The notes under the pieces: generated by a model
What the model saw: the letters and a program-made list of their open reading frames with translations, nothing else
Database searches by the model: none
What the model was told of the DNA's origin: nothing
Part shown: positions 4,541-33,566 of the stretch, piece by piece
Layout: each line of letters starts with the position of its first letter
Numbering within the stretch: position 1 is the stretch's first letter
Assembly: GCA_026393575.1 (NCBI GenBank)
Contig: JAPKZX010000028.1
Location: 1 to 34,493 of the forward strand
Direction: 5' to 3'
From: Actinomycetota bacterium
Lineage (GTDB): Bacteria; Actinomycetota; Acidimicrobiia; Acidimicrobiales; Ilumatobacteraceae
Length of the DNA stretch: 34,493 bases
Made by a program: the position numbers and the translations under genes

Positions 4541-4546
4541 ACAATA
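4541..4546 (-). promoter_or_regulatory. -10-like TATTGT for the GDPD gene
   Basis: On the minus strand TATTGT is followed by 7 nt and then GTG (4533). This is a leaderless arrangement and argues against the GTG at 4542, which overlaps the hexamer. Confidence 0.5.
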
Positions 4547-4558
4547 GGTGGTGGCTTC

Positions 4559-4564
4559 TATGCT
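4559..4564 (+). promoter_or_regulatory. -10-like TATGCT for tatB-tatC-helY
   Basis: TATGCT is followed by 6 nt and the GTG start of tatB at 4571. It lies back to back with the GDPD hexamer 12 bp away. Confidence 0.5.
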
Positions 4565-4570
4565 GGAAGA

Positions 4571-4918
4571 GTGTTCAACCTCAGCGGAAGCGAAATAGTT
4601 TTCCTCCTGCTCGCAGGACTGGTGGTTCTCGGACCCGAACGATTGCCAGGCGTGATTCGCCGTGTGGGAAAAACGTACGGCGAGATAAGGCGCGCAGCAT
4701 CTGGATTTGAACGAGAATTCCGAGACACGTTCAAAGAGCCGCTCGATGATTTCCAAAAAGCCGCCAATGACATCAGAAGTGGATTTGGGGAAGTTGACCT
4801 CGAACCATCCCCGCCATTTCGACCAGAGCGGACAGCTTTCCCCACACCAGATTTTTCACCATCCGCTCCAGTTGAAAAGCAAGACGATTCCGTCAAGAGT
4901 GACGAGTCAGATCAATGA
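4571..4918 (+). CDS. tatB: Sec-independent (Tat) translocase subunit TatB/TatA-type
   Basis: Tat subunits of this family pair with TatC to export folded proteins. The 115-residue product starts with a single transmembrane helix (residues about 6-20), then the hinge G-P-E-R-L-P (21-26), an amphipathic helix rich in Arg and Glu (about 27-75) and a Pro-rich acidic tail. The G-P-E-R-L-P hinge and the long second helix favour TatB over TatA, but the two are hard to part. An upstream in-frame ATG at 4496 would add 25 residues without family character, so GTG 4571, which gives the expected short N-terminus and follows a -10-like TATGCT by 6 nt, is preferred. The stop overlaps tatC by 4 nt. Confidence 0.9.
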   Translation: MFNLSGSEIVFLLLAGLVVLGPERLPGVIRRVGKTYGEIRRAASGFEREFRDTFKEPLDDFQKAANDIRSGFGEVDLEPSPPFRPERTAFPTPDFSPSAPVEKQDDSVKSDESDQ

Positions 4919-5676
4919 GCGACTCCAGTACGCGTACTCCTGACGCGATGCCCATCATGGAGCATCTACGAGAGCTTCGTTCACGCATCATTAGATCTTT
5001 CTTGGCTATCGCTGTTGCCTCACTGACGATGCTTACGGTCTACGACCCGGTCAAGAATTTTCTGACAGAGCCGTACAGAAACCTGTGTTCATCTCGTCCC
5101 GACTTCAATTGCGACGGATCATTGTTCTCATTAGGACCACTCGATGGTTTTTCTGCACGCATGCGTATTTGTTTGTACGGCGGCGTCGTACTGGCGCTAC
5201 CTGTCATCTTGTGGCAGATCTGGCGATTCATCGTCCCAGCATTGTCAAAGAAGGAAAAACGTTATGCAGTTCCTTTCATCGTCTCATCGATTGTGTTGTT
5301 TGCAGTCGGTTGCTCGCTTGCCTATTGGACGCTCGATAAGGCTCTGGAGTTTCTTATCTCGTGGTCCGGTACTGACGTTTCTCAGGCCTACCAAGTAACG
5401 AAATACATTTCACTTGTAGTGCTGATGATGTTGGCATTCGGTGTCGGATTCTTGAGTCCTGTCCTCTTAGTTTTTCTTCAATTGGTTTCAGTTGTTACGC
5501 CAAGAGCACTCATCAAGCAATGGAGATACGCAGTCATGGGCATCTTTGTTGCTGCAGCGGTCATCACACCATCGGGTGACCCAGTAAGTATGTTGGCGCT
5601 CGCGGTACCACTATCGGTTTTGTACCTGTTGTCAGCCTTAGTTGGTTGGCTCCTTGTGCGCCGAAGGGCCACATAA
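4915..5676 (+). CDS. tatC: Sec-independent protein translocase TatC
   Basis: TatC is the core membrane receptor for twin-arginine signal peptides. The 253-residue protein has the conserved amphipathic start M-E-H-L-R-E-L-R-S-R (residues about 15-24), containing the Glu and the L-R-E-L-R motif that contact the signal peptide. It has about six hydrophobic segments and the conserved F-I-V-P-A-L-x-x-x-E-K-R loop (about 104-116). The conserved T-P-S-G-D-P near 221-226 corresponds to the usual T-P-x-x-D-P. The start overlaps the tatB stop (ATGA) and the helY start follows 4 nt after the stop, so the three form one operon, the same order as tatA-tatC-helY in mycobacteria (from memory). Confidence 0.97.
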   Translation: MSDSSTRTPDAMPIMEHLRELRSRIIRSFLAIAVASLTMLTVYDPVKNFLTEPYRNLCSSRPDFNCDGSLFSLGPLDGFSARMRICLYGGVVLALPVILWQIWRFIVPALSKKEKRYAVPFIVSSIVLFAVGCSLAYWTLDKALEFLISWSGTDVSQAYQVTKYISLVVLMMLAFGVGFLSPVLLVFLQLVSVVTPRALIKQWRYAVMGIFVAAAVITPSGDPVSMLALAVPLSVLYLLSALVGWLLVRRRAT

Positions 5677-5680
5677 CTCA

Positions 5681-8224
5681 ATGACAAATGTTCGACAAGA
5701 GTTTCTCAGTCAACTGAGTTATGCACCAGATGGCTTCCAAGTAAAGGCTATGGATTCCATTGATGCAGACGCATCCGTACTAGTGGCTGCACCGACTGGG
5801 AGTGGAAAAACACTCATCGCTGAATACGGCATTGCTCGTGCTCGTTCTCTTGGTCTTCGGGCGTTTTACACAACACCGATTAAGGCTCTGTCTAACCAGA
5901 AGTATCGCGACCTTCAAACTCTGTATGGAGCTCACAACGTGGGTCTTGTCACAGGCGATAATGCGGTGAACCCTGAAGCACCTGTAGTTGTGATGACTAC
6001 TGAAGTGTTGCGCAACATGATCTATTCGCAGTCCACCAGGCTTGACTCGCTGGGTGTGGTGGTTCTGGATGAAGTGCACTACCTGCAGGACGCCTATCGC
6101 GGCCCAGTGTGGGAAGAAGTCATCATTCAGTTAGACCCGGAAGTACAACTTGTGTGCCTCTCTGCAACAGTTTCAAATGCTGACGAGGTTGGGGAGTGGC
6201 TGTCCACTGTGCGCGGTCGTACAGACGTAGTGGTGGAGACCACACGACCCATTGAACTCGTGAATCACTTTGCTTTGTTTGACACTGCCACCAAAAAGAC
6301 CGAAATGTTTCCCACAGTTGTGAGTGGCGAACCAAACCGACACGTTCAACGACTTCTCGCCTCCGGCTCATCAACCCGTGGCAAAGGCGGCCATATCACT
6401 GGAAAGAAGACTCGACGATTCTCACCACCATCACGACCAGAGATTGTGGACATGTTGGAAGACCACAAGATGCTGCCGGCCATAGTTTTTATCTTCAGCC
6501 GTGCACAGTGCGAAGACGCCGTGCTTTCCTGCATGCGAGCAGGCATCGTGCTCACATCTATGGACGAAGAGGCCCAGATCAGAGACATCGTCGAGCGTCA
6601 TTGCGAGAATCTGACAGCAGATGACAAAGACGCTTTGGGGTACGGGAACTTTATTGACGATGTGTCAAGCGGAATTTCGTGCCACCACGCAGGGATGATC
6701 CCCATGTTCAAAGAGGCCGTTGAAGAATGCTTTGTGAATGGGCTCGTAAAGGTTGTCTTTGCAACAGAGACGCTTGCCGTAGGTATCAACATGCCGGCGC
6801 GCGCTGTTGTCATTGAGAAGTTGACGAAGTACACGGGCGAGCACCACCAATTGTTGCGTGCATCAGAGTTCACACAATTGACAGGGCGCGCAGGTCGCCG
6901 TGGTTTAGATGAGATTGGTCACGCCATCTCACTGTGGAACCCATTTGTTAGCTTCGACCAAGTTGTGTCGCTGGCAATGAGTCGCAGTTTTCGATTGTCA
7001 TCTGCGTTTCGCCCCACTTTCAACATGGCAGTCAATATGGTGCGCAATCACTCCGAAGATGGAGCCCATCACATTCTCAATCTTTCTTTTGCTCAGTTCC
7101 AAGCCGATCGCGATGTCGTAACTTCCGAGGCGACGCTTGAAAAACGAAAGAAGGAGCTTGCACTACTCGAGCAAGCTTTTCAATCCCACGAGGCTCCGTC
7201 CGCATCTTCGGAAATGTTGGCTTCAGCCGTAGAGGCTGAGATTTCTCTACGAGCACTTCGCCCAGGAGACGTCGTTATGTTCGACGCGTCCAACATTCGC
7301 GGCAGGGGACTTGTGTTGAGTACTGCTGCTCGCCGATCGGGCATACGACTCACAGTTGTCACGCCTAGTCGAAAAGTTATTGATGTAATGGCAAAAGATC
7401 TCCGTGCTTTGCCATTGAAGGGCGGCGCGGTGGACCTTCCGGTTCCGTTCGAGCCAGCACGCACAGAGTTTATTAGAGAGGCAGCTACGCGTCTCACTAA
7501 GGCAAAGGTTGACGACATCGTTGGACGTTCGCTAGAGGTCAATGATGAAGAGCGCGTGGTTGATTCTCCACTGTCTGCCAAGAGCATCAAAAGGTTACGC
7601 AAGGAAATTGAACAACTCGAAGAACGCTCACGGCACAGATCCGGCTCCGTTGGGGCAAGGTTTATGGATGTTGTTCAACTTCTACGCGAGATGGATTACA
7701 TCAACGATTGGGAACTAACCGATAGAGGACACACGCTTGCTGGAATCTTCCACGAATCAGATCTGCTCATCGTTGAAGTGATGAATCGAGGGATTCTCGA
7801 CAATCTTTCAGTCAATGATCTTGTCGCGGTGTTGTCAACTCTGGTCTTCGAACCACGTGGCGGGGATAACGGTGGCCCTCCACGATGGCCTTCTGATTTA
7901 GTTCGGCAGAGGTTCAAGAGAGTTGAGAAGGTGAGTTTGCAGTTGCAAGATATGCAGCGTGAAAAAGGTATGCACTTGCATCGTGCTCCCAATGGTGGAT
8001 TGGCTTTTGAAACTGCCGGTTGGGCATCAGGGAAACCATTATCGCGAATTCTTGATCCCGATTTGACCCCAGGTGACTTTGTTAGGTCCATGCGACAACT
8101 CATCGACTTGCTGCGTCAAATCTCAAGCACCACTACAAACGATTCATTACGCCAAGTTGCAATCGATGCGTCACGCGCCCTCGACAGAGGAGTCGTCTCA
8201 GCTGCTGCTGGAGAATCAATATGA
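5681..8224 (+). CDS. helY: Ski2-like superfamily 2 RNA/DNA helicase (HelY type)
   Basis: This 847-residue protein is a Ski2/Mtr4-like DExH helicase of the HelY family, likely acting in RNA processing or decay. Motifs in order: A-P-T-G-S-G-K-T (residues 37-44), the T-T-P-I-K-A-L-S-N-Q-K segment (64-74), D-E-V-H (130-133), S-A-T (161-163), C-H-H-A-G-M, then T-G-R-A-G-R-R-G in motif VI. The C-terminal half carries a long helical region and a winged-helix/ratchet-type segment as in other members. An upstream in-frame start at 5642 lies inside tatC and is rejected; ATG 5681 begins Met-Thr-Asn-Val-Arg 4 nt after the tatC stop. Its stop overlaps the next gene by 4 nt. Confidence 0.95.
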   Translation: MTNVRQEFLSQLSYAPDGFQVKAMDSIDADASVLVAAPTGSGKTLIAEYGIARARSLGLRAFYTTPIKALSNQKYRDLQTLYGAHNVGLVTGDNAVNPEAPVVVMTTEVLRNMIYSQSTRLDSLGVVVLDEVHYLQDAYRGPVWEEVIIQLDPEVQLVCLSATVSNADEVGEWLSTVRGRTDVVVETTRPIELVNHFALFDTATKKTEMFPTVVSGEPNRHVQRLLASGSSTRGKGGHITGKKTRRFSPPSRPEIVDMLEDHKMLPAIVFIFSRAQCEDAVLSCMRAGIVLTSMDEEAQIRDIVERHCENLTADDKDALGYGNFIDDVSSGISCHHAGMIPMFKEAVEECFVNGLVKVVFATETLAVGINMPARAVVIEKLTKYTGEHHQLLRASEFTQLTGRAGRRGLDEIGHAISLWNPFVSFDQVVSLAMSRSFRLSSAFRPTFNMAVNMVRNHSEDGAHHILNLSFAQFQADRDVVTSEATLEKRKKELALLEQAFQSHEAPSASSEMLASAVEAEISLRALRPGDVVMFDASNIRGRGLVLSTAARRSGIRLTVVTPSRKVIDVMAKDLRALPLKGGAVDLPVPFEPARTEFIREAATRLTKAKVDDIVGRSLEVNDEERVVDSPLSAKSIKRLRKEIEQLEERSRHRSGSVGARFMDVVQLLREMDYINDWELTDRGHTLAGIFHESDLLIVEVMNRGILDNLSVNDLVAVLSTLVFEPRGGDNGGPPRWPSDLVRQRFKRVEKVSLQLQDMQREKGMHLHRAPNGGLAFETAGWASGKPLSRILDPDLTPGDFVRSMRQLIDLLRQISSTTTNDSLRQVAIDASRALDRGVVSAAAGESI

Positions 8225-8823: not shown

Positions 8824-8828
8824 GCATC

Positions 8829-8834
8829 TACGGT
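8829..8834 (+). promoter_or_regulatory. -10-like TACGGT for the MDR oxidoreductase gene
   Basis: TACGGT is followed by 6 nt and ATG 8841; no Shine-Dalgarno lies between. It supports ATG 8841 over an upstream in-frame start at 8769. Confidence 0.5.
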
Positions 8835-8840
8835 AGAACC

Positions 8841-11064: not shown

Positions 11065-11070
11065 TAGGCT
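11065..11070 (+). promoter_or_regulatory. -10-like TAGGCT for the ThyX-like gene
   Basis: TAGGCT is followed by 8 nt and GTG 11079. It lies in the 46-nt gap after the amidohydrolase gene and fits the leaderless pattern. Confidence 0.45.
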
Positions 11071-11078: not shown

Positions 11079-12683
11079 GTGACTGTGTATGTTCCCGAGG
11101 AATTCACGGACGCAGAGTCAGATATCTTGCGTCGTTATTTCAGCAACTTAGATCAACCTGTATTTGCGTTAGTTAATCTGCCTGAAGTTGTAAAAGGTGC
11201 TCTATTTGCTCGTTACAGCAGAAGTCCGCGCAGCCTTCGTCGTCTGTTTCTTGATGAGTTCGTTAACGATCTAGAAATTGCTGGTGATCAAGCAGTAGAT
11301 GCCACCGTTGGCGTGGACCGTGCTGAGTCTTTGTACGAGAAAGTCTTCGTTGAATATGGCGATGACTCTGTTGCGCAATTAGGCGGTGTGCATCTTGCTT
11401 GCGAGCAAGCGTCAAACATTCTCACCAAGATTTTGGAGTGGGGTCGCTTGATGAGTTACCTCGAACAAAGCACCCGCTACATCGCCTACGACGAACGTTT
11501 GGGCGGTCGATTCAGGTATTACCGAGACCCAGATGTGGTTGCCAGCAAGTTTGGTACCCGCTATGTAGGCGATATGGATCGCATGTTCGATTCGTATAGC
11601 CAATTGGCAGAGATTGTTACAGAACACGTCCGCTCTACAGTGCCTAAGGGTGTAAAGGATTCAGACTTTGTATATCGCCAAGCGACTCGTGCGAAGGCAT
11701 TAGATGCTGTACGCGGAATGTTGCCGGCGTCGTCTCTATCAAACGTAGGCATCTATGGCAGTGGACAAGCGTTCGAGCAGTTGTTGCTGCGCATGCGTGC
11801 ACATCCACTTCCAGAGTCTCGCCTGTATGCCGACATGATGTTGACCGAGTTGCGAAAAGTCATTCCGTCTTTCTTACGTCGCGTTGATGTTGCAGAACGT
11901 GGCGGAAAGTGGTCTGAGTACCTCAGTACCAATGCGGGCAACATGTCCGAACTCATTGATTCGATGATGGGGGACACTGTCGCTAGCGATGTTGACGAAG
12001 TGACTCTCGTGGATTTTGATCCTGAGGCCGAGAACAAACTGGTTGCCGCGGCGTGTTACGCATATTCACATCTTCCTGAGTCCCAGATTCGTATGCGTGT
12101 CGAAAAGATGAGCATCGCAGAAAAGACCGAGATTCTCAACACGTACATCGGTGATCGCGATAATCGAAGGCATCGTCCTGGACGCGCGTTCGAAAGCATT
12201 GACTATCGCTTCGATGTTCTCTCTGACTACGGCGCTTTCCGAGATCTTCAGCGTCACCGTCTGCTCACCATCGAGTGGCAACCACTAACTCCGTATCACG
12301 GATACGCACGTCCAGAATTGGTGGATGCAGCAGGGGGAACTGCCTTGTTCGACGAAGTGATGGATAGGTCATCGTCACTGTATGACGCACTCGTTACCGA
12401 CTACCCACAGCAGGCTGCCTATGCCGTCTCCATGGCGTATCGCATTCGCTATGTCATGCAGTTCAACGCACGTGAGGCTATGCACATGCTGGAACTTCGT
12501 TCAAGCCCACAGGGACACCCTGCTTATCGCCGTGTGGCACTCGAGATGCACCGTCAGATCGCTGAGAAGGCCGGTCACAAGGCCGTAGCTGCGTCAATGA
12601 GCCATATGACGACCGAAGCCCCCGAGCTTGAGCGTTTGGAGTCTGAACGTCGTGCAGAGGCCAAGAGAAACAAGCATTCGTAG
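11079..12683 (+). CDS. Double-domain ThyX-like protein (FAD-dependent thymidylate synthase family)
   Basis: A 534-residue protein with two halves that each resemble flavin-dependent thymidylate synthase, about twice the usual ThyX length. The ThyX signature is R-H-R-x2-S-x-N-E-x-S-x-R-Y. Half 1 has W-G-R-L-M-S-Y-L-E-Q-S-T-R-Y (residues 121-134): it keeps the Ser, Glu, Ser, Arg and Tyr but not the first Arg-His. Half 2 has R-H-R at 392-394, followed by L-L-T-I-E-W-Q-P-L-T, where the rest is lost. Residues 457-475 resemble the ThyX helix with N-A-R-E and L-E-L-R. A composite active site in a pseudo-dimer is possible; loss of activity is the alternative. GTG start with a -10-like TAGGCT 8 nt upstream; monocistronic. 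Confidence 0.8.
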   Translation: MTVYVPEEFTDAESDILRRYFSNLDQPVFALVNLPEVVKGALFARYSRSPRSLRRLFLDEFVNDLEIAGDQAVDATVGVDRAESLYEKVFVEYGDDSVAQLGGVHLACEQASNILTKILEWGRLMSYLEQSTRYIAYDERLGGRFRYYRDPDVVASKFGTRYVGDMDRMFDSYSQLAEIVTEHVRSTVPKGVKDSDFVYRQATRAKALDAVRGMLPASSLSNVGIYGSGQAFEQLLLRMRAHPLPESRLYADMMLTELRKVIPSFLRRVDVAERGGKWSEYLSTNAGNMSELIDSMMGDTVASDVDEVTLVDFDPEAENKLVAAACYAYSHLPESQIRMRVEKMSIAEKTEILNTYIGDRDNRRHRPGRAFESIDYRFDVLSDYGAFRDLQRHRLLTIEWQPLTPYHGYARPELVDAAGGTALFDEVMDRSSSLYDALVTDYPQQAAYAVSMAYRIRYVMQFNAREAMHMLELRSSPQGHPAYRRVALEMHRQIAEKAGHKAVAASMSHMTTEAPELERLESERRAEAKRNKHS

Positions 12684-12748: not shown

Positions 12749-12754
12749 TAGTAT
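12749..12754 (+). promoter_or_regulatory. -10-like TAGTAT for the acidic zinc-ribbon gene
   Basis: TAGTAT lies 37 nt before the GTG at 12792. Unlike most genes here, this one has a leader with a strong AGGAG Shine-Dalgarno at 12781-12785, 6 nt before the start. Confidence 0.4.
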
Positions 12755-12791
12755 CCCGCCGCGAGCTGTTGCGCAAAAAGAGGAGCACATA

Positions 12792-14640: not shown

Positions 14641-14646
14641 ACCGTA
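14641..14646 (-). promoter_or_regulatory. -10-like TACGGT for the enoyl-CoA hydratase gene
   Basis: On the minus strand TACGGT is followed by 6 nt and ATG 14634, in the 44-nt gap after the upstream gene. Leaderless arrangement. Confidence 0.5.
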
Positions 14647-16151: not shown

Positions 16152-16157
16152 ACGCTA
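16152..16157 (-). promoter_or_regulatory. -10-like TAGCGT for the 487-residue protein gene
   Basis: On the minus strand TAGCGT is followed by 9 nt to ATG 16142, or 3 nt to GTG 16148. It is part of a 71-bp divergent promoter region. Confidence 0.4.
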
Positions 16158-16202: not shown

Positions 16203-16208
16203 TACCTT
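16203..16208 (+). promoter_or_regulatory. -10-like TACCTT for the gamma-carbonic-anhydrase-like gene
   Basis: TACCTT is followed by 5 nt and ATG 16214. It supports ATG 16214 over an in-frame TTG at 16199. Confidence 0.45.
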
Positions 16209-17889: not shown

Positions 17890-17928
17890 GCGGAATTGAT
17901 CAACCAGTCAATTCCGTGCCCCACGGAC

Positions 17929-18982: not shown

Positions 18983-18988
18983 ACCTTA
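18983..18988 (-). promoter_or_regulatory. -10-like TAAGGT for the threonine aldolase gene
   Basis: On the minus strand TAAGGT is followed by 7 nt and GTG 18975, with no ribosome site. It lies 7 bp from the divergent hexamer at 18996. Confidence 0.5.
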
Positions 18989-18995: not shown

Positions 18996-19001
18996 TACCA
19001 T
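18996..19001 (+). promoter_or_regulatory. -10-like TACCAT for the zinc-finger/coiled-coil gene
   Basis: TACCAT is followed by 6 nt and ATG 19008. Its last two bases enter the palindrome at 19000-19017. Confidence 0.45.
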
Positions 19002-19017
19002 TTCGTCATGACGAAAT
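19000..19017. promoter_or_regulatory. 18-bp perfect palindrome over a start codon, possible operator
   Basis: ATTTCGTCA followed by its exact reverse complement TGACGAAAT, centred on the CATG that holds the ATG at 19008. A bound dimer would block initiation from the hexamer at 18996 and perhaps affect the divergent aldolase promoter. No regulator is identified. Confidence 0.45.
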
Positions 19018-19385
19018 CACCAGAGGCATCAGGACAGCGGGGGAAAGACAGCCGTTGCCGATGGTGTCGACATGTTTTGGCCCAATCCGATGGACCCGGT
19101 CGCAAGAAAGAATTCTGCAGTCAGAAATGTAGGCAATGGGATTGGGTTGCACGCCAACGAGCTACGGAACTCGAATTGTCCGAGAACGAACTTGTGGTGA
19201 CACGTGATGAGCTCGACACATTGAAAGATCAGATTTATGTTTTGCATTGTGCAGTCATTGATGCGCGCACAGATCTGGTAGCCGGACGCCATACAAAGGA
19301 CAGTCTGCTGGAGATGGTCAATTGGCTTTTGGAGGCCGCAGACCCCGTGGCCGCCGCTTCGTTATCTCCATCACTTCGCCCATAA
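19008..19385 (+). CDS. Small zinc-finger/coiled-coil protein
   Basis: A 125-residue protein of unknown function. The N-terminus holds Cys17-x-x-Cys20 and Cys37-x3-Cys41 in C-R-W-C and E-F-C-S-Q-K-C-R-Q-W, a probable zinc site. Basic residues around G-R-K-K and the following W-V-A-R-Q-R-A suggest nucleic acid contact (inference). Residues about 50-105 form a charged coiled coil. I recall similar short proteins in many actinobacteria, without a known role. The start ATG sits in an 18-bp palindrome and follows TACCAT by 6 nt, so the mRNA should be leaderless. It diverges from the threonine aldolase gene. The C-terminal 20 residues are low complexity (Ala, Ser, Pro). Confidence 0.72.
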   Translation: MTKSPEASGQRGKDSRCRWCRHVLAQSDGPGRKKEFCSQKCRQWDWVARQRATELELSENELVVTRDELDTLKDQIYVLHCAVIDARTDLVAGRHTKDSLLEMVNWLLEAADPVAAASLSPSLRP

Positions 19386-19489: not shown

Positions 19490-19495
19490 TAAGGT
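19490..19495 (+). promoter_or_regulatory. -10-like TAAGGT for the PLP lyase gene
   Basis: TAAGGT is followed by 6 nt and ATG 19502. It is the same hexamer as that of the threonine aldolase gene. Confidence 0.5.
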
Positions 19496-20774: not shown

Positions 20775-20780
20775 TACGGT
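20775..20780 (+). promoter_or_regulatory. -10-like TACGGT for the riboswitch-gcvP transcript
   Basis: TACGGT ends 10 nt before the first riboswitch helix, which would place the start of transcription near 20787, just ahead of the aptamer. Confidence 0.45.
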
Positions 20781-20790
20781 GTAAGAAAAC

Positions 20791-20961
20791 GTCTACTTGG
20801 GAGAGTGTGTTTCATCTGAAACACCGCCGAAGGAGCAACCACCCCGGAATCTCTCAGGCACAGGGACCAGGTAGACGCCGAACGCTGGAAAGAGAGGGCT
20901 CGCCCTCCGCCGACGGGGAAAGCCACGCAAGTGGTGAAGCTCTCAGGCACAAACGACAGCG
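20791..20961 (+). promoter_or_regulatory. Tandem glycine riboswitch upstream of gcvP
   Basis: Two consecutive glycine aptamers. Aptamer 1: P1 strands GTCTAC (20791-20796) and GTAGAC (20871-20876) enclose a G-G-G-A-G-A-G segment, the core CCGCCGAAGGAGCAA and TCTCTCAGGCAC. Aptamer 2: P1 CGCTG (20883-20887) with CAGCG (20957-20961), GGAAAGAGAG, CCGCCGACGGGGAAAGCC and GCTCTCAGGCACAAACGACAG. These are the conserved bases of the family, which binds glycine and usually turns on gcv genes. The platform after aptamer 2 is only 27 nt, without terminator or T-run; the gcvP ribosome site GGAG (20980-20983) lies in it, so control of translation is inferred. Confidence 0.95.
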
Positions 20962-20988: not shown

Positions 20989-23865
20989 ATGACCTCTACC
21001 CCACGCTCACTTACCACGCCTGCATTCGAAGCAGATCACTTCGCTACAAGACATCTTGGTCTTAGCGAATCCGACCGGCACCACATGTTGCAGGCAGTTG
21101 GTTACACCTCCACGGAAGCATTACTTGATGCCACCATTCCTTCGGCCATTCGTCTTCGTGAATCAATGACATTGTCCGCACCAGTTCCAGAACATGAAGT
21201 GCACGCGTTGTTGCGTTCCAAGTTTTCGCGCGATGCACATCGAACATCACTCATTGGTCAGGGCTACTACGGAACCATCACTCCCCCTGTAGTGAAACGC
21301 AATGTGCTTGAGAATCCGGCGTGGTACACCGCCTATACGCCGTATCAACCTGAGATCAGCCAGGGCCGACTCGAAGCTCTTCTCAATTTTCAAACCATGA
21401 TCACAGAAATCACAGGTTTGCCATTGGCCAACGCTTCCCTGCTTGACGAGGCCACTGCAGTTGCCGAGGCAATCACTATGGCTCACCGAATTAGTAAATC
21501 GAAATCAGATTCTGTGTTTATCGATGCGAATACACACCCACAAACTCTTGCGGTCGTGCGCACACGCATGGAGCCAATCGGCATCGAAGTCATTTCTGGG
21601 CACATCACAACTGTGCCGGACAATTGTTTTGCAGTAGTTGTCTCGCTACCCGGTAGCGACGGAGCGTTGGAAAATCCATCTTTCCTCGCAGCACTCAACG
21701 AAAAAGTGCATGCAACAAATGGCATTGCAATCGCCATCACAGACCTACTGGCGTGCACACTCATTACTCCTCCAGGTCAACTTGGTTTTGATATTGCCGT
21801 TGGTTCGTCACAGAGATTTGGAGTGCCAATGGGTTTTGGTGGGCCTCACGCCGCATTCATGGCGACACTCACGTCTCACGCTCGCGCATTACCCGGACGC
21901 CTTGTTGGTGTCAGCACCGATACAGCAGGTCGTCCCGCATTACGGCTTACCTTGCAAACAAGAGAACAGCACATCCGTCGCGAGAAGGCGACGTCGAACA
22001 TCTGCACTGCGCAAGTCCTCCTTGCAAACATTGCGGGCATGTACGGCGTATGGCACGGTCCAAACGGTTTGAAGCACATTGCACAGAGAATTCACTCACT
22101 CGCTGCAGCAGCAGGCAATGCCTTGAAATACTCAGGAAAGACCATCTTGCATGATCAGTTCTTTGACACTGTTGCTTTCGCGTGCGATAACGCTGTTGAC
22201 GTTGCGAATTCAGTTCGTGCAGCAGGATTCAACATACGCGTCGTCAACAGAACAACAGCATCGTTCAGTGTGGACGAGACCACAACAGTTGCGGTTCTGA
22301 ATGAATTGCTGGTCACCTTAGGAGCAACAGCAGTTACCGAGACTTACAACGCGCTTCCTGCTGAATTCTCCAGACAAGACAACTTCATGGCTCAGACCGT
22401 GTTTCATAAGTACCACACCGAACATGAGATGCTTCGCTACCTGCGTTCGTTAGCCGACAGAGACTTGGCTCTCGACCGCACCATGATTCCGCTTGGCTCG
22501 TGCACTATGAAGTTGAATTCAACCACGGAGATGGAACCCATCACCTGGCCAGAGTTCTCTTCACTCCACCCATTTGTGCCGGAAGACGAATCACTAGGAC
22601 TTCGTACTGTCGTGACAGAGTTAGAGCAAATGCTTGTCGCCATCACTGGCTACGACGCAGTAAGTCTTCAACCGAATGCCGGCAGCCAGGGAGAGTTTGC
22701 AGGCTTGATGGCCATTCGCGCTTATCACCGTTCGCGAGGCGACATTGGAAGAACCATTTGCCTCATACCGTCAAGTGCTCACGGCACAAATGCAGCAAGT
22801 GCAGTAATGGCCGGCATGCAGGTTGTTGTTGTGAACTGCGACGACAACGGCAACGTCGATATTGATGACTTGCGAGCAAAAGTTCTGAAATCTGGTGACT
22901 CACTTGCTGCAATCATGGTGACGTATCCATCAACACATGGAGTATTCGAATCAGCAATCACGGAAATCTGCGCAATGGTGCACGACCAGGGTGGCCAGGT
23001 ATACGTCGATGGTGCCAACTTGAACGCGCTCGTGGGTACTGCTCAACCAGGAAAGTTTGGGGCCGATGTCAGTCACCTCAACTTGCACAAAACTTTCTGT
23101 ATCCCACACGGTGGCGGCGGACCAGGAGTTGGCCCAGTAGCTGTGCGTTCACATCTTGCGCCGTTTCTTCCCGGCAATCCCCTCGTTGATGACTCTCCTG
23201 TTGGGCCGATATCAGCAGCCAATTACGGCTCAGCCAGCATTTTGGCGATCCCTTGGGTGTACATCACCATGATGGGCGCAGACGGTCTGCTTCAAGCAAC
23301 GTCAGATGCGATTCTCTCCGCCAACTACATCGCCCACCGACTTGATGACGCGTTCCCTGTGCTGTATCGCGGTGCAGGCGGAACCGTTGCTCATGAGTGC
23401 ATCTTGAATGTTGCGCAAGTAATTGCCGGAACAGACATCGGAATTGACGACATTGCCAAGCGCCTCATGGACTACGGGCTACACGCTCCAACCATGAGTT
23501 TCCCTGTTGCTAACACATTGATGGTGGAACCAACGGAAAGCGAATCACTCAGTGAAGTCGACCGATTCTGTGAAGCCATGCTGCACATTCGCAAAGAGAT
23601 TCAGCAAGTCATCGACGGCAAAGTTGCCGCAAGCGATTCTGTTCTCCATCACGCGCCGCACACCATCGAAGACATAGCTGGTGATTGGCAACGCAGTTAT
23701 TCGCGCGAGCAAGCTCTGTTCCCAGTCTCTAGCCTGCGTAAACGTGCGTATTACCCGCCAGTATCAAGAATTGATGCTGCATTCGGAGATCGCAACCTGG
23801 TGTGCACCTGTGGCCCTATCGAGGAATACGCAATGTCCCTCGATGCGGATACTGTAACGGTGTGA
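20989..23865 (+). CDS. gcvP: Glycine dehydrogenase (decarboxylating), P-protein
   Basis: GcvP decarboxylates glycine with PLP and passes the aminomethyl group to the lipoyl arm of GcvH. The 958-residue product is the full-length fused (alpha plus beta) form. The start has F-A-T-R-H-L-G, and residue 701 is the Schiff-base Lys in N-L-H-K-T-F-C-I-P-H-G-G-G-G-P-G. M-I-P-L-G-S-C-T-M-K-L-N and Q-P-N-A-G-S-Q-G-E also match the family. ATG 20989 has GGAG 5 nt upstream and follows the tandem glycine riboswitch. The stop overlaps a coiled-coil protein gene (GTGA). gcvT and gcvH are not downstream; they lie on the opposite strand in a separate operon. Confidence 0.98.
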   Translation: MTSTPRSLTTPAFEADHFATRHLGLSESDRHHMLQAVGYTSTEALLDATIPSAIRLRESMTLSAPVPEHEVHALLRSKFSRDAHRTSLIGQGYYGTITPPVVKRNVLENPAWYTAYTPYQPEISQGRLEALLNFQTMITEITGLPLANASLLDEATAVAEAITMAHRISKSKSDSVFIDANTHPQTLAVVRTRMEPIGIEVISGHITTVPDNCFAVVVSLPGSDGALENPSFLAALNEKVHATNGIAIAITDLLACTLITPPGQLGFDIAVGSSQRFGVPMGFGGPHAAFMATLTSHARALPGRLVGVSTDTAGRPALRLTLQTREQHIRREKATSNICTAQVLLANIAGMYGVWHGPNGLKHIAQRIHSLAAAAGNALKYSGKTILHDQFFDTVAFACDNAVDVANSVRAAGFNIRVVNRTTASFSVDETTTVAVLNELLVTLGATAVTETYNALPAEFSRQDNFMAQTVFHKYHTEHEMLRYLRSLADRDLALDRTMIPLGSCTMKLNSTTEMEPITWPEFSSLHPFVPEDESLGLRTVVTELEQMLVAITGYDAVSLQPNAGSQGEFAGLMAIRAYHRSRGDIGRTICLIPSSAHGTNAASAVMAGMQVVVVNCDDNGNVDIDDLRAKVLKSGDSLAAIMVTYPSTHGVFESAITEICAMVHDQGGQVYVDGANLNALVGTAQPGKFGADVSHLNLHKTFCIPHGGGGPGVGPVAVRSHLAPFLPGNPLVDDSPVGPISAANYGSASILAIPWVYITMMGADGLLQATSDAILSANYIAHRLDDAFPVLYRGAGGTVAHECILNVAQVIAGTDIGIDDIAKRLMDYGLHAPTMSFPVANTLMVEPTESESLSEVDRFCEAMLHIRKEIQQVIDGKVAASDSVLHHAPHTIEDIAGDWQRSYSREQALFPVSSLRKRAYYPPVSRIDAAFGDRNLVCTCGPIEEYAMSLDADTVTV

Positions 23866-27670: not shown

Positions 27671-27678
27671 CTTGATCT

Positions 27679-28637: not shown

Positions 28638-28644
28638 ACCGCTG

Positions 28645-28650
28645 ATGGTA
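28645..28650 (-). promoter_or_regulatory. -10-like TACCAT for the pgsA-gcvH-garA operon
   Basis: On the minus strand TACCAT is followed by 7 nt and GTG 28637. Divergent from the SDR hexamer, 32 bp apart. Confidence 0.5.
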
Positions 28651-28682
28651 GTCCGAGTGTTCCTCTGCTTCCGTGAAGCACC

Positions 28683-28688
28683 TAATGT
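28683..28688 (+). promoter_or_regulatory. -10-like TAATGT for the SDR gene
   Basis: TAATGT is followed by 6 nt and ATG 28695, with no ribosome site. Leaderless pattern. Confidence 0.5.
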
Positions 28689-28694
28689 TCCACT

Positions 28695-29507: not shown

Positions 29508-29905
29508 CAACTATTTTTACACGCATCATTCAGGGCGAGATTCCTGGCACGTTCGTGTACAAGGACGAAGCATGTGTTGCCTTCATGTCAATAAACCCGA
29601 TGGCCGACGGACACGTACTGGTTATCCCCCGCGATGAAGTTGATCACTGGGTGGATTTATCTCCGTACATCGCATCTCACCTATTTGAAGTTTCACATCG
29701 CATTTCTCGTGCACTCAGCGTTGCATTCCCGTGTGAAAAGGTCGGGCTAATTATTGCGGGCTACGAAGTGAACCATTGCCACATTCATCTCATTCCAACA
29801 ACGAATATGGGGCAACTAAGTTTCGCTAACGCAGCTACAAGTGTTGAGCGTTCTACCCTCGAAGCACACGCTGAGAAAATAACGGCAGCACTCGCCACGC
29901 TCTAG
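29504..29905 (+). CDS. HIT family protein (histidine triad hydrolase)
   Basis: HIT proteins hydrolyse nucleoside phosphoramidates or dinucleotides. The 133-residue product has F-T-R-I-I-Q-G-E-I-P (residues 5-14), the usual family start, D-G-H-V-L-V-I-P (35-42) and the histidine triad H-C-H-I-H-L (His91, His93, His95) with the nucleophile at His93 expected. The triad has Cys and Ile between the histidines, which is within family range. The start overlaps the SDR stop by 4 nt and the stop shares the CTAG (29902-29905) with the SRAP remnant. Cytoplasmic; physiological substrate unknown. Confidence 0.94.
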   Translation: MTTIFTRIIQGEIPGTFVYKDEACVAFMSINPMADGHVLVIPRDEVDHWVDLSPYIASHLFEVSHRISRALSVAFPCEKVGLIIAGYEVNHCHIHLIPTTNMGQLSFANAATSVERSTLEAHAEKITAALATL

Positions 29906-30407
29906 AACAGAGTCAGGTCATTGCTCTCAGTCGGCTCATCATCTGGCAGCACAAGAGACGCATCGTTGTTACGCACACTATTCACGCGACTCGACACTCG
30001 GAGGGTTGCAAAACGAGGTTGATGATCTGGGTGAAACAGTTCAAGCGGTGGCTCCGAAGACGACAACCACTCCAGTGCTTCTTGTGCATGGAACTCGACC
30101 GGACTTCTGTCGTGAATGAAATCTAGATCGCCAATGCTGTCTCTGGTGATCAACGCGCACGTCCGTTCTTCCTCCACAATGGGTGACTCGCTCCACAGTC
30201 CCGCCCCGAGCATGAGGTGTCCATCACTTCGAGTGACGAAATACGGAATCTTTACTTTCGGATTACTGCGCTCCCATTCGTAAAAGCCCGTCATCGGAAT
30301 GATGCATCTATGCCCTTTTACCAGGCCGCCCCAGTACCAGATACTGCATCATTCATCTCGTTAAAGAGATCTTGAGTATTGAAGTTGCCAACAAATCTTC
30401 CACACAT
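29902..30407 (-). pseudogene. SRAP (YedK/HMCES-type) DNA-protein crosslink gene, internally deleted and frameshifted
   Basis: SRAP proteins shield abasic sites in single-stranded DNA through a covalent link to Cys2. At 30407 (minus) an ORF starts M-C-G-R-F-V, exactly the family N-terminus with Cys2, but stops with TAA (30318-30320) after 29 codons. The other frame, open below 30348, reads R-C-I-I-P-M-T-G-F-Y-E-W and on through A-G-L-W and I-H-D-R-S-P-V to 29902, the C-terminal half with its catalytic His. The middle part (roughly 60-70 residues, including N-V-A-P-T and the W-G-L-x-P region) is missing. So the gene has suffered a deletion plus a frame change. An assembly error is the alternative. 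ATG 30294 could still start a 130-residue fragment without Cys2. Confidence 0.85.
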
Positions 30408-30437
30408 GCGTTCATCAGCCTACGAGAAAACTCTCAC

Positions 30438-30515
30438 TGGTCGGGCTGGCGGGATTTGAACCCACGACCTCTTGTCCCCCAGACAAGCGCGCTAACCAAG
30501 CTGCGCTACAGCCCG
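30438..30515 (-). tRNA. tRNA-Pro (GGG anticodon)
   Basis: A 78-nt cloverleaf on the minus strand. The acceptor arm CGGGCTG (30509-30515) pairs with CAGCCCG, and discriminator A plus an encoded CCA end at 30438. The anticodon arm reads CTTGT-CTGGGGG-ACAAG, a 7-nt loop with anticodon GGG (Pro). The T-arm has GGTTCAAATCC. The D-arm G-C-G-C-A-G-C-T-T-G-G-T-T-A-G-C-G-C is normal. It lies 30 nt upstream of the SRAP remnant start. Confidence 0.97.
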
Positions 30516-30526
30516 AATAGCTATGA

Positions 30527-30532
30527 ACTCTA
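30527..30532 (-). promoter_or_regulatory. -10-like TAGAGT for tRNA-Pro
   Basis: On the minus strand TAGAGT ends 11 nt before the mature tRNA 5' end, which would give a leader of a few nucleotides. Confidence 0.3.
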
Positions 30533-30534
30533 TC

Positions 30535-30551
30535 GGCTCTGCGGCAGAGCC
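30535..30551 (-). terminator. Stem-loop after the zinc-ribbon membrane protein gene
   Basis: GGCTCTG and CAGAGCC form a perfect 7-bp stem with a 3-nt loop, 2 nt after the stop codon at 30554. There is no T-run, so it may be a U-tract-less terminator or a processing element before tRNA-Pro. Confidence 0.4.
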
Positions 30552-30553
30552 AT

Positions 30554-30796
30554 CTAAACGAAAATCTGGACTACACGCCAGCCCAAATATAAACACAACA
30601 GACCTACAAGAAGTTTGAAATGCCAAGGCGTTTTCTCATTGTCCAAACCAGCAAGTTTCTTCAGATCAAGAGTGTCCGCGGTAACTCGACCAGACACCGA
30701 GATCACTTCCAATGTTTCTTTGCATTGCGGACAACTTCCGTCGTCCATCAAGGCGGACGGAGCAAAGTATTTTGCGCACGGTTCACACCATGGCAT
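30554..30796 (-). CDS. Small zinc-ribbon membrane protein
   Basis: An 80-residue protein of unknown function. The N-terminus starts M-P-W-C-E-P-C with Cys4 and Cys7, then Cys22 and Cys25 in S-C-P-Q-C, a zinc ribbon. A polar segment follows, and residues about 59-78 form one hydrophobic helix (L-L-V-G-L-L-C-L-Y-L-G-W). The protein should be tail-anchored in the membrane with the ribbon in the cytoplasm. ATG 30796 lies 2 nt after the der stop, so it is in the der operon. I recall short M-P-W-C-x-x-C proteins in many actinobacteria. A stem-loop follows the stop. Confidence 0.75.
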   Translation of the reverse strand: MPWCEPCAKYFAPSALMDDGSCPQCKETLEVISVSGRVTADTLDLKKLAGLDNEKTPWHFKLLVGLLCLYLGWRVVQIFV

Positions 30797-30798
30797 TA

Positions 30799-32124
30799 CT
30801 AATCGCCCTTTTTCCTGACGCGCATCTTCAAAGGTGTAGATCCAAATTGAAATGCTTCACGGATGGAACGCTCGAGATAACGAATGTACGGCTGAGGCAA
30901 CTCACGATTCACGAACAACGTGAACGTTGGTGGATCATTCGAACCCTGCACAGCAAACAACACACGTGCTCCCCCGCCGGCTGGTTGCTTCTGCTGGGCT
31001 TCCGCAATGATGCGATTCACGTCACGTGTCGGAATTTTGCGATGGTATTGCTCGATAGTTTCTTGCAACACAGGACGGAGTTTGTGCACACCCATACCTG
31101 TGAGCGCACTCAGTTTCAACACCGGTGCATCGTCGATGAAATACAGCATGCGAGCAAGATCTGCTTCAACTGAACGACGATCTTCAGACTCCAACAGTTC
31201 CCATTTGTTGAGAACAACAAGAATCGGGCAGCCAGCAACGTCGATGCGTTCGGCCAGGCGCTGATCTTGACTAGTCACGCCAACAGTTGCGTCGATAATC
31301 AACATCGCAATGTCTGCACCATCAATTGCCTTCAATGCGCGAACCAACGAGTAATACTCAGTCGAATCGTCAATCTTGCTGCGACGGCGCATACCTGCAG
31401 TGTCAATGAAAACTAAAGGACCTTCAGGTGTCTCTACCAAGGTGTCAATGGCATCGCGCGTAGTTCCTGGCATGTCGTGCACTACTGAGCGCTCTGCACC
31501 TACAAGACGGTTAAACAATGTGCTCTTACCTACGTTTGGTCGACCCACTAGGGCAACACGGGGAACCCCGTCAGGCTTAATCGCTTCTATCTCTTCAACA
31601 GGTGCTTCAACGTGTGGAATACGCGCAACAACTTCATCTAAGAAATCACCTGAACGACGACCATGCAAAGCAGATACCGACAGGGGCTCACCAAGACCGA
31701 GAGACATGAACTGCCAGCGCTCTTGTTCGCGACGATCGTTGTCAGACTTGTTAGCGGCCAGCAACACGGGCACATTTGTACGACGTAACCAAGCTGCAAT
31801 CAACTCGTCCTCATCAGTGACGCCAATCGCAGCATCCACCATGAAAATCACAAGGTCTGCTTCACGAACAGCTTCCTCGACTTGACGGGAAACTTTGTCG
31901 TCGAGTTCGCTACCACTCGGCATCCAACCGCCCGTGTCGACAATCCAAAAGTCAACACCTAGCCAGGCGGCCATACGGCGATGGCGGTCTCGCGTGATAC
32001 CAGGACGATCTTCAACGATGGCGGCTTGCTCACCAATGACACGGTTGAACCAAGTGCTCTTTCCCACGTTGGGACGGCCGACGATTACCACTACCGGGTA
32101 ATTGACAATCTCTTCCTCAGACAT
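30799..32124 (-). CDS. der: Ribosome biogenesis GTPase Der (EngA)
   Basis: Der is a double-GTPase needed to mature the large ribosomal subunit. The 441-residue product has two G domains: P-loops G-R-P-N-V-G-K-S-T at residues 16-24 and 194-202, each with its own D-x-x-G (D-T-G-G and D-T-A-G) and N-K-x-D-type base motif (N-K-S-D in the first; N-K-W-E in the second). A C-terminal KH-like domain ends the protein with a basic tail. No anomaly in length. It starts 8 nt inside the DUF512 gene, so the two are translationally coupled, and the zinc-ribbon gene follows 2 nt after its stop. Confidence 0.98.
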   Translation of the reverse strand: MSEEEIVNYPVVVIVGRPNVGKSTWFNRVIGEQAAIVEDRPGITRDRHRRMAAWLGVDFWIVDTGGWMPSGSELDDKVSRQVEEAVREADLVIFMVDAAIGVTDEDELIAAWLRRTNVPVLLAANKSDNDRREQERWQFMSLGLGEPLSVSALHGRRSGDFLDEVVARIPHVEAPVEEIEAIKPDGVPRVALVGRPNVGKSTLFNRLVGAERSVVHDMPGTTRDAIDTLVETPEGPLVFIDTAGMRRRSKIDDSTEYYSLVRALKAIDGADIAMLIIDATVGVTSQDQRLAERIDVAGCPILVVLNKWELLESEDRRSVEADLARMLYFIDDAPVLKLSALTGMGVHKLRPVLQETIEQYHRKIPTRDVNRIIAEAQQKQPAGGGARVLFAVQGSNDPPTFTLFVNRELPQPYIRYLERSIREAFQFGSTPLKMRVRKKGD

Positions 32125-33553
32125 GGGCTAACTCTTCCTTGGCTGCTTCCAACCTCTTACGCAATATTGCGCCGCTTGTAGCGATGACTTCGACGTCAAA
32201 CTCACTAGAAAGCGCTTCAAAGGTACCTCCGTCTAGGAAGACTCCATCGTTTAGGCACACATCAGGCACTAAATAGCGACGATTGTCACTCCGTCGGCGT
32301 AAAACAGCACAAATATCTTCATAAGTGAGGAGTCCAGCTACACCAGTGTTGCCACCGAAATATTCATTCTTCACTTCAACAACATCGACATCGGCAAAAC
32401 CCTCTGCTTCCAAAACAGACGAAAGAATTACTGCCCCATAAGAACCTGTGATGACAGCCAAAGGCTTAGGCGCCTTCTTCTCACGTACGCGCAACGTCAC
32501 CGATGCAACTGATTGAGTGCGTAATCCAGTATCGCTTGCAGGGTTCACAAGTCGTACATAATCCGTTGGTGAATCAACAGACGAAAAGAAACCATCGCTC
32601 CGACCTGAGTGGTCGGGACCAACTCCAGTAAATGAGTTCATAAACGAACGAGCAAGACCGACACCGTCTTCCAGCATCGGAAACTCGCCATAGTGCTCGG
32701 CTTCAGGTAATTCAATTTCTGCTACCAGATAGAACTCGTCGGCTAAGTGAATCACATCACGACCAAGAAGCGATTTATAACGTGACTGCCACTTCTCCAC
32801 CGTTGCAATGGTCTCCACAGCCTCATCCTTGGACTGCACCCTCATTCGGCTTTCTGTGTTGAACCGAGACAGCCCCAATGGAACGATCGCAATTGATTCA
32901 ATCTCGGGACATTCTTCTAAAAGCCCAGCAAGCGTCTCCGAAAGATGGTCTTTGTCGTTTACGCCTGGACAAAGAACAATCTGCGCACGAACTTGAATAT
33001 CGTTCTGCGCAAGAATCTTCATCCAACGAAGACTGAAACCACCTCGATCATTTCTCAGCATTTCGGAACGAAGATGCGGACTGTTGGCGTGAATGCTCAC
33101 ATAAATCGGCGACAACCGCTCTTCAAGAACTCTCTCAAGGTCCGCCTCAGTGAATCGTGTCAGCGTGGTGAAGTTGCCAAACAAAAAACTCAACCGATAG
33201 TCGTCGTCCTTCAAATACAAACTGCGACGCATTCCCTTCGGCAATTGGTAAATGAAACAGAACTCGCAATGGTTATCGCATGTGTGAATGCGATCGAATA
33301 CGGCACTAGAAATTGAAACCCCAAAAGGAGAACCTGCGACATTGTGCACCAAGACATCGATTGACTCGTTCCCACGCAGAAGCATCAACTCGACTTCATC
33401 GGAATCGACCAACTTCTGCCATTCAAGAATGTCGCGGGGCACCACACCGTTTACAGACACGACTTTGTCGCCCGGAAGCACTCCAGCAGATGCCGCATTC
33501 GACCCTTGTTCGACGCCAGCAATCACTGGGTAAGAATCGGTCACTGCTTTCAC
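32117..33553 (-). CDS. PDZ/radical SAM-type DUF512 protein
   Basis: A 478-residue protein of the DUF512 family, which often sits beside der in bacteria. An N-terminal PDZ-like domain (residues about 10-70, G-V-L-P-G-D-K-V-V-S-V-N-G) is followed by a radical-SAM-like part with Cys92, Cys96 and Cys99 in C-D-N-H-C-E-F-C-F, the C-x3-C-x2-C cluster motif, and G-V-N-D-K-D and S-I-H-A-N-S-P. The C-terminal DUF512 domain includes G-x-Y-G-A-V and N-x-Y-F-G-G-N. Biochemical role unknown; a ribosome-related function is inferred from gene neighbourhood. GTG 33553 has TAGCCT 7 nt upstream. Der is coupled to it by an 8-nt overlap. Divergent from ispH. Confidence 0.92.
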   Translation of the reverse strand: MKAVTDSYPVIAGVEQGSNAASAGVLPGDKVVSVNGVVPRDILEWQKLVDSDEVELMLLRGNESIDVLVHNVAGSPFGVSISSAVFDRIHTCDNHCEFCFIYQLPKGMRRSLYLKDDDYRLSFLFGNFTTLTRFTEADLERVLEERLSPIYVSIHANSPHLRSEMLRNDRGGFSLRWMKILAQNDIQVRAQIVLCPGVNDKDHLSETLAGLLEECPEIESIAIVPLGLSRFNTESRMRVQSKDEAVETIATVEKWQSRYKSLLGRDVIHLADEFYLVAEIELPEAEHYGEFPMLEDGVGLARSFMNSFTGVGPDHSGRSDGFFSSVDSPTDYVRLVNPASDTGLRTQSVASVTLRVREKKAPKPLAVITGSYGAVILSSVLEAEGFADVDVVEVKNEYFGGNTGVAGLLTYEDICAVLRRRSDNRRYLVPDVCLNDGVFLDGGTFEALSSEFDVEVIATSGAILRKRLEAAKEELAHV

Positions 33554-33560
33554 CAGTCAT

Positions 33561-33566
33561 AGGCTA
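33561..33566 (-). promoter_or_regulatory. -10-like TAGCCT for the DUF512-der operon
   Basis: On the minus strand TAGCCT is followed by 7 nt and GTG 33553. Leaderless pattern. Confidence 0.5.

What the first reader, a model, noticed from the sequence alone, without database searches (positions are those of the whole stretch)
4541..33566. Window-wide leaderless promoter code: TANNNT 5-9 nt before start codons
At the heads of most transcription units a TANNNT hexamer sits a fixed short distance before ATG/GTG with no Shine-Dalgarno. Spacings: GDPD 7, tatB 6, MDR 6, ThyX-like 8, enoyl-CoA hydratase 6, 487-residue protein 9, gamma-CA 5, threonine aldolase 7, zinc-finger 6, PLP lyase 6, pgsA 7, SDR 6, DUF512 7. 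A TANNNT is expected about once in 64 positions by chance, so hits in a four- to five-base window at nearly all heads are far above expectation. Leadered exceptions are the acidic protein, WhiB and gcvP. No common -35 was seen. Leaderless mRNAs are known in actinobacteria; the density here, usable to correct start sites, is notable.
Basis: partly seen in the sequence, partly recalled or inferred. Interest (0 to 1): 0.7.

Follow-up and report, generated by a model that had tools for sequence, protein, structure and literature searches.

The report
Leaderless gene starts in an actinobacterium
Many genes in this uncultured actinobacterium appear to be copied into messenger RNAs that begin exactly at the start codon, marked by a promoter signal about six bases ahead; the pattern is real and conserved, but of a kind already known from other actinobacteria.

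Summary
In detail: all 13 listed TANNNT hexamers are present at the stated spacings. The window is a contig of a MAG related to Ilumatobacteraceae and other Acidimicrobiia. In a 619-kb genome sample, TANNNT 6-8 nt before a candidate start occurs at 121 of 339 heads against about 21 expected, and ranks first of 64 patterns; E. coli shows no excess (10 of 116, about 17.5 expected). Orthologous starts keep it in 82 of 86 distinct pairs, against 16 of 95 at other heads. SD cores are rare (5 of 173 vs 89 of 392), no -35 is shared, and a pyrimidine precedes the start in 138 of 173. With longer spacers, pyrimidines fill the extra positions, as expected if transcription starts on the start codon. Best reading: ordinary sigma-A -10 elements making leaderless mRNAs, already described for Actinobacteria (PMC3160421, PMC3898074). 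The window is denser than its own genome (12 of 20 heads vs 95 of 319); overall about 27-30% of genes fit, near published values. Modest additions: a GC-rich hexamer middle, purine-poor spacers, and a conserved palindrome centred on one leaderless ATG. No RNA data exist here.

The parts
4541..4546 (-). TATTGT, -10 of GDPD, 7 nt before GTG 4533
   Evidence: TANNNT kept in 3 of 3 distinct relatives
4559..4564 (+). TATGCT, -10 of tatB, 6 nt before GTG 4571 (protein begins MFNLSG; longest-ORF start 4496 not favoured)
   Evidence: 3 of 3 relatives
8829..8834 (+). TACGGT, -10 of the zinc-binding dehydrogenase (MDR), 6 nt before ATG 8841
   Evidence: 4 of 4 relatives
11065..11070 (+). TAGGCT, -10 of ThyX-like gene, 8 nt before GTG 11079
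   Evidence: 7 of 7 relatives, all at gap 8
14641..14646 (-). TACGGT, -10 of enoyl-CoA hydratase, 6 nt before ATG 14634
   Evidence: 11 of 11 relatives
16152..16157 (-). TAGCGT, -10 of the 487/489-residue protein, 9 nt before ATG 16142
   Evidence: 10 of 10 relatives, at gap 8 or 9
16203..16208 (+). TACCTT, -10 of gamma carbonic anhydrase-like gene, 5 nt before ATG 16214
   Evidence: 11 of 11 relatives, 8 at gap 5 and 3 at gap 6
18983..18988 (-). TAAGGT, -10 of threonine aldolase-like gene, 7 nt before GTG 18975
   Evidence: 16 of 16 relatives
18996..19001 (+). TACCAT, -10 of zinc-finger gene, 6 nt before ATG 19008
   Evidence: 15 of 15 relatives, all at gap 6
19490..19495 (+). TAAGGT, -10 of PLP decarboxylase-like gene, 6 nt before ATG 19502
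   Evidence: 14 of 15 relatives, L035-type exception being L135, whose aligned position is not a start codon
28645..28650 (-). TACCAT, -10 of pgsA, 7 nt before GTG 28637
   Evidence: no orthologous head among the fetched relatives
28683..28688 (+). TAATGT, -10 of SDR, 6 nt before ATG 28695
   Evidence: no orthologous head among the fetched relatives
33561..33566 (-). TAGCCT, -10 of DUF512 protein, 7 nt before GTG 33553
   Evidence: no orthologous head among the fetched relatives
3187..3192 (+).
   Evidence: the single relative hit does not align to a start codon
28064..28069 (-). TACCGT, possible internal -10 of gcvH, 7 nt before GTG 28056, inside pgsA
   Evidence: not tested by conservation
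23850..23855 (+). TACTGT, possible internal -10 for ORF 23862, 6 nt before GTG, inside gcvP
   Evidence: the four relative hits do not align to a start codon, so weak
12749..12754 (+). TAGTAT, likely -10 of the leadered acidic protein (GTG 12792 with GAGGAG at 12780-12785)
   Evidence: sequence; inferred
20775..20780 (+). TACGGT, likely -10 of the leadered gcvP transcript, 7 nt before the riboswitch
   Evidence: sequence; inferred
20788..20879 (+). glycine riboswitch aptamer (RF00504) in the gcvP leader

Best explanation
The hexamers are sigma-A -10 promoter elements placed so that RNA polymerase starts transcription on the A or G of the start codon, giving leaderless mRNAs that are translated without a Shine-Dalgarno sequence. 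Shown here: the hexamer, its spacing (mode 6 nt, so the start codon is the 7th base after the -10), its conservation, scarcity of SD, no shared -35, and the pyrimidine before the start. Inferred: that the TSS is the first base of the start codon, and that ribosomes initiate there directly. The same -10 type also appears to serve leadered genes (gcvP, acidic protein, WhiB), where the TSS would lie further upstream.
For: Position: at coding-score starts of 245 G000 heads, TANNNT counts at gaps 5-10 are 3, 31, 16, 11, 11, 5 against 1.47 per position in the background; same-genus G001 has 0, 22, 10, 6, 7, 2 for 168 heads, background 0.81. E. coli (GC 0.508): 2 of 94 at gap 6-8, 5.5 expected. Any-candidate-start test, gap 6-8: 121 of 339 (about 21 expected), rank 1 of 64 patterns; G001 86 of 226 (about 12), rank 1; E. 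coli rank 54. If only hexamers with C or T as third base are counted, so that none makes a stop codon, the order holds in G000+G001: 38 at gap 6, 20 at gap 7, 7 at gap 8. Conservation: 96 of 100 orthologue pairs, 82 of 86 when identical DNA fetched twice is counted once (30 genes, 27 with a TA-led orthologue), against 16 of 95 pairs for other heads; control spacing 4 of 86. For ten window heads, 94 of 95 distinct relatives keep TANNNT at gap 5-9. SD core 5 of 173 vs 89 of 392 in G000+G001. Starts: 123 ATG, 50 GTG, 0 TTG of 173; M. smegmatis leaderless translation needs ATG or GTG (PMC4633059 passages). Pyrimidine at -1: 138 of 173 vs 239 of 392, p 1e-5. For gaps 8-9, pyrimidine from hexamer +6/+7 to start 99 of 130 vs 100 of 208 at +2 to +5, again 70 of 86 vs 77 of 156 in related loci L013-L081. 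A preference for TSS 7 bp downstream of -10 and for a pyrimidine just upstream on the coding strand is known for bacterial RNAP (PMC5730371 passages).
Against: No RNA data: no TSS was mapped. Operon-internal genes also show some hexamers (11 of 157, 1.0 expected, in G000; 11 of 119, 0.7 expected, in G001; gap 6-8), which would have to be internal promoters. The pyrimidine test gave nothing in the small G059+G046 set (7 of 13 vs 9 of 20, p 0.73). Fewer G in the discriminator at longer spacers held in G000+G001 (92 of 255 vs 35 of 156, p 0.004) but not in L013-L081 (117 of 267 vs 51 of 117, p 1). Of heads with gap 8-9, 18 of 52 (G000+G001) and 12 of 39 (L013-L081) still have an earlier YR step. 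In columns, bases just before TA and the last two middle bases are conserved almost as well (0.55-0.60) as T, A, T (0.64, 0.69, 0.71). Three genomes outside the genus show little or no excess in small samples: G020 5 of 155 (1.2 expected), G041 2 of 34 (3.4), G055 2 of 30 (3.4); others do: G028 10 of 67 (1.6), G059 12 of 61 (2.1), G046 11 of 46 (1.8), G052 4 of 45 (0.4). My gene calls at the GC of G020 (0.755) look poor, so it is inconclusive. The EM mixture fraction was unusable: 0.557 against 0.38-0.49 in shuffles.
Confidence: 0.92

Rival explanations
1. The hexamers are -10 elements but transcription starts 1-5 nt upstream of the start codon, so mRNAs have tiny leaders rather than none.
For: Gaps of 8 and 9 are present (11 and 11 of 245 heads), and 18 of 52 such heads in G000+G001 keep an earlier YR step.
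Against: The mode is gap 6, where position 7 after the hexamer is the start codon; pyrimidines replace purines between the hexamer and the start at gaps 8-9 in two data sets.
Confidence: 0.06
2. The hexamer is a translational or compositional feature (AT-rich ribosome site, upstream stop codons, or chance), not a promoter.
For: TAG/TAA stops could enrich TA near starts, and a start caller may favour the first start after a stop: the chosen start is the first in frame in 64 of 86 cases at gap 6.
Against: The signal is strong at divergent heads, which have no upstream co-directional gene (98 of 254), weak at operon-internal genes, first of 64 patterns, without excess in E. coli, and it persists without stop-forming hexamers.
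Confidence: 0.02

Closest known systems
TA-led leaderless genes of Actinobacteria (Zheng et al. 2011, PMC3160421; abstract, section 7 and passages seen)
   Same: TANNNT with its first T about 12 bp upstream of the start, SD scarce, a fifth or more of genes.
   Different: Zheng ties the weak middle (TAnnnT) to GC above 60% and TAtaaT to medium GC; here GC is 0.515 yet TATAAT is at none of the 173 TA-led sites and the middle is GC-rich (0.74 against 0.55 further upstream).
Leaderless transcriptomes of Mycobacterium (Cortes 2013 PMC3898074; Shell 2015 PMC4633059; passages seen)
   Same: TANNNT -10, no conserved -35, RTG at +1, leaderless and SD genes in one genome.
   Different: Measured there by TSS mapping; only sequence evidence here. 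The base before TA is G or C here in 144 of 173, whereas the preference reported there is [G/C][A/G]N.
-10 region adjacent to ORFs in Deinococcus-Thermus (PMC12340547; passages seen)
   Same: Same architecture, with experimental support.
   Different: Different phylum.
Bacterial bidirectional promoters (PMC10268837; abstract and outline seen)
   Same: Closely spaced divergent promoters.
   Different: Here each start codon appears to be the TSS; divergent pairs that are both TA-led lie as close as 22 nt.

Membership tests
TA-led leaderless genes of Actinobacteria | TANNNT about 12 bp (first T) upstream of the start codon at many genes | tested here: met
   Mode at gap 6, so first T at -12
TA-led leaderless genes of Actinobacteria | No SD at those genes | tested here: met
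   SD core 5 of 173 vs 89 of 392. The hexamer occupies the SD position, so part of this is exclusion by space.
TA-led leaderless genes of Actinobacteria | Around 20% or more of genes | tested here: met
   Excess fraction 0.27 of 519 genes (G000), 0.30 of 356 (G001)
TA-led leaderless genes of Actinobacteria | Transcript 5' end is the start codon | not testable with these tools
   No RNA data; indirect support from the pyrimidine at -1 and purine-poor spacers
Mycobacterial-type leaderless initiation | Only ATG or GTG as leaderless start | tested here: met
   123 ATG, 50 GTG, 0 TTG of 173; other heads 9 TTG of 392. TTG is rare throughout, so the test is weak.
Mycobacterial-type leaderless initiation | -10 without a conserved -35 | tested here: met
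   TTGAC + 16-18 nt + TANNNT at 2 sites in 108 G000 TA-led heads (0.8 expected) and 0 in 72 of G001 (0.2 expected); other heads 3 in 254 (0.8) and 0 in 165 (0.2)
Mycobacterial-type leaderless initiation | 16S anti-SD retained alongside | not tested
   The own 16S was found only to model position 754 of 1533; PMC10783764 lists UCACCUCCUU for Acidimicrobiia (passage)

The most novel reading that the evidence does not exclude
In Acidimicrobiia the leaderless start is a single composite element, roughly sTAsssT-N5..8-Y-RTG, in which a GC-rich -10 middle and a purine-poor run before the start codon are selected together to fix transcription on one exact base, so that start codons can be read from DNA to the nucleotide; regulators then bind on the start codon itself, as at the palindrome over the zinc-finger ATG.
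Probability: 0.3. Interest if true: 0.45.

Novelty: new member of a known kind. Interest (0 to 1): 0.27.

Why it matters
It extends a known actinobacterial mode of gene expression to an uncultured lineage for which two limited searches showed nothing specific (one paper, on anti-SD; 10 of 57 papers listed, none of the ten holding 'leaderless'). It gives a practical rule for correcting start codons: 5 of 13 starts in this window differ from the longest reading frame. The purine-poor spacer is a sequence-only sign that could help to call leaderless genes where no RNA is available.

Tried and rejected
EM mixture model for the leaderless fraction: it kept a TANNNT motif in G000 and G001 and turned into an SD motif in E. 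coli, blurred in G059 and G046, and its fraction was unreliable because shuffled data gave 0.38-0.49. Discriminator-G rule: not replicated in L013-L081. A shared -35 (TTGAC or TTG[AC] 16-18 nt ahead): near expectation. Palindromes as a general feature of leaderless heads: arms of 8 or more in 7 of 180 TA-led and 18 of 419 other heads, so no link to leaderless starts, although 25 of 599 exceeds the 7 of 599 in shuffles. Divergent pairs both TA-led: 21 of 109 pairs under 400 nt, close to the 18 that independence of the two heads would give by my arithmetic; such pairs are only closer together (medians 56.5 vs 94 nt, 22 and 105 pairs of all distances, p 0.005). Zinc-finger protein: no hit in PDB sequences or NCBIfam, nothing over cut-off in Pfam; AlphaFold model mean pLDDT 77.6, pTM 0.49, mostly helical; I ran no fold search on it. 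A DNA search of the window's Der gene against E. coli genomes was not used. The first gene caller (codon usage only) was replaced and its counts are not used.

Rows dropped before counts: genes within 150 nt of a stretch end; genes classed edge or far, except and the ALL rows; heads leave out the class 16-59 nt from the upstream gene, later calls include it. In L013-L081 identical heads and 27 heads that a rough pattern took for the query family were dropped, but not, so those fractions are somewhat inflated by one orthologous head. These loci are titled Acidimicrobiia, Actinomycetota, Actinomycetes or just bacterium; a few carry a wrong genus name. The first count of orthologue pairs held five contigs twice; one search counts them once.
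Full report
WHAT IT IS. The window is contig C105 of a 1.92-Mb, 129-contig MAG, 82% complete. Relatives found with one window protein are titled Ilumatobacteraceae and other Acidimicrobiia or Actinomycetota. It encodes a proteasome-Pup ligase cluster, tatBC, a ThyX-like protein, glycine cleavage genes and others.

THE OBSERVATION. All 13 hexamers and spacings are as stated. A gene caller using only coding statistics chose the implied starts in 12 of 13; it missed the zinc-finger gene. In the window, 12 of 20 called heads carry TANNNT at gap 5-9; DUF512 (classed as edge) and the zinc-finger gene lie outside that count. Shuffled upstreams give a mean of 3.43 and a maximum of 10 in 1000 trials. 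Some of the eight misses look like wrong starts for operon genes (tatC, merR, FHA), which is my inference.

GENOME SCALE. I sampled 619 kb of the own genome, 400 kb of a same-genus genome (G001), smaller pieces of others, and 200 kb of E. coli K-12 as a GC-matched control. TANNNT peaks at gap 6 in G000 (31 of 245 heads) and G001 (22 of 168), background 1.47 and 0.81 per position. E. coli has no peak (2 of 94 at gap 6-8, 5.5 expected). Letting every candidate start count, to avoid dependence on start choice, gives 121 of 339 and 86 of 226 at gap 6-8 against about 21 and 12; TANNNT is the top pattern of 64 in both, and rank 54 in E. coli. Related loci L013-L081 in three GC bands show 43 of 93, 102 of 261 and 99 of 280 against 3.8, 12.8 and 11.5; they share one orthologous head, so they are somewhat inflated. 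Four other genomes outside the genus show an excess (G028, G059, G046, G052) and three do not (G020, G041, G055), in samples of 30-155 heads. The excess fraction of all genes is 0.27 (G000) and 0.30 (G001); of divergent heads 0.48 and 0.46.

CONSERVATION. For 30 TA-led head genes with orthologues in the fetched relatives, 82 of 86 distinct pairs keep TANNNT at gap 5-10 (96 of 100 before duplicates were removed); other heads 16 of 95; control spacing 4 of 86. 27 of the 30 genes have at least one TA-led orthologue; pairs of one gene are not independent. For ten of the window's 13 heads, 94 of 95 distinct relatives keep it at gap 5-9 (alignments). pgsA, SDR and DUF512 had no orthologous head in hand. 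By column in 75 pairs, T, A and T match at 0.64, 0.69 and 0.71, the spacer at 0.25-0.37, but the two bases before TA and the last two middle bases also stand at 0.55-0.60.

MECHANISM. SD cores are at 5 of 173 TA-led heads and 89 of 392 others. No -35 stands out; a TGN extended -10 is at 2 of 173. The base before the start is a pyrimidine in 138 of 173 vs 239 of 392. When the spacer is 8 or 9 nt, pyrimidines make up 99 of 130 positions from the seventh base after the hexamer to the start, against 100 of 208 nearer the hexamer, and again 70 of 86 vs 77 of 156 in L013-L081, though not in the small G059+G046 set (7 of 13 vs 9 of 20). RNA polymerase prefers to start 7 bp after the -10 with a pyrimidine just upstream (PMC5730371 passages), so removing purines from the extra positions is what a fixed start at the codon needs. 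At gap 9 ATG outnumbers GTG 23 to 3 in G000+G001 (gap 6: 61 to 24, p 0.12) and 8 to 0 in L013-L081 (gap 6: 39 to 50, p 0.002). A related prediction about G in the discriminator failed to replicate.

MOTIF. The three middle bases are GC-rich: 0.74 at gap 6-9 vs 0.55 at gap 20-100 in G000; 0.79 vs 0.61 in G001; 0.80 vs 0.58 in L013-L081; 0.77 vs 0.53 in G059+G046. TATAAT is at none of the 173 sites in G000+G001. This departs from the GC trend described in PMC3160421. Why the middle is GC-rich is not explained here.

EXCEPTIONS. The acidic protein (GTG 12792), gcvP and WhiB each have a TANNNT further upstream; the first has an SD, the second a riboswitch leader, the third a G-run before ATG 17851 and a TTGAC at 17 nt. 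This fits one -10 type serving both modes.

PRIOR WORK. Leaderless genes with TANNNT in Actinobacteria are in print (PMC3160421, PMC3898074, PMC4633059), and gene finders model them (PMC9581028 passages). The searches 'leaderless' + 'Acidimicrobiia' (one paper, where the class appears in an anti-SD table) and (10 of 57 papers listed, none of the ten with 'leaderless') showed nothing on this class; that is a limited search.

VERDICT. Real, conserved, correctly interpreted, and of a known kind. Interest is modest; the spacer and hexamer-middle statistics and the palindrome over a start codon are the parts a specialist may not expect.

Noticed in passing
window 19000-19017: Perfect 18-bp palindrome ATTTCGTCATGACGAAAT centred on the ATG of the leaderless zinc-finger gene, between divergent leaderless promoters of that gene and a threonine aldolase-like gene. 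With up to 1 mismatch its 16-bp core lies at this junction in 12 of the 18 same-genus genomes searched and at two loci (C105, C60) of the own genome; two further genus hits (G010, G016) lie elsewhere; G007 has a weaker form. Possible operator.
   Followed up: partly
window 19008-19385: Conserved 125-aa protein with a CRWC...FCSQKC zinc finger and long predicted helices; no family over cut-off.
   Followed up: partly
window 17891-17916: Inverted repeat CGGAATTGACT...GATCAATTCCG over the TTGAC of the WhiB-like gene, recognisable in relatives.
   Followed up: no
G000:C60:1328-2359 (L148): A second threonine aldolase/zinc-finger locus in the same bin, 79% identical in protein and resembling relatives L010 and L128; the bin may hold pieces of a sister species.
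   Followed up: no
L006, L008, L032, L045, L049: Records titled Bifidobacterium breve that encode relatives of this acidimicrobial protein; the names look wrong.
   Followed up: no
L084:1747-2808, L100:9604-11047: Similar palindromes CTACCTAC..GTAGGTAG ahead of TA-led genes, perhaps a shared regulator site.
   Followed up: no
window 11079-12683: ThyX-like protein of 534 aa with two Thy1 stretches, longer than the usual ThyX (recalled).
   Followed up: no
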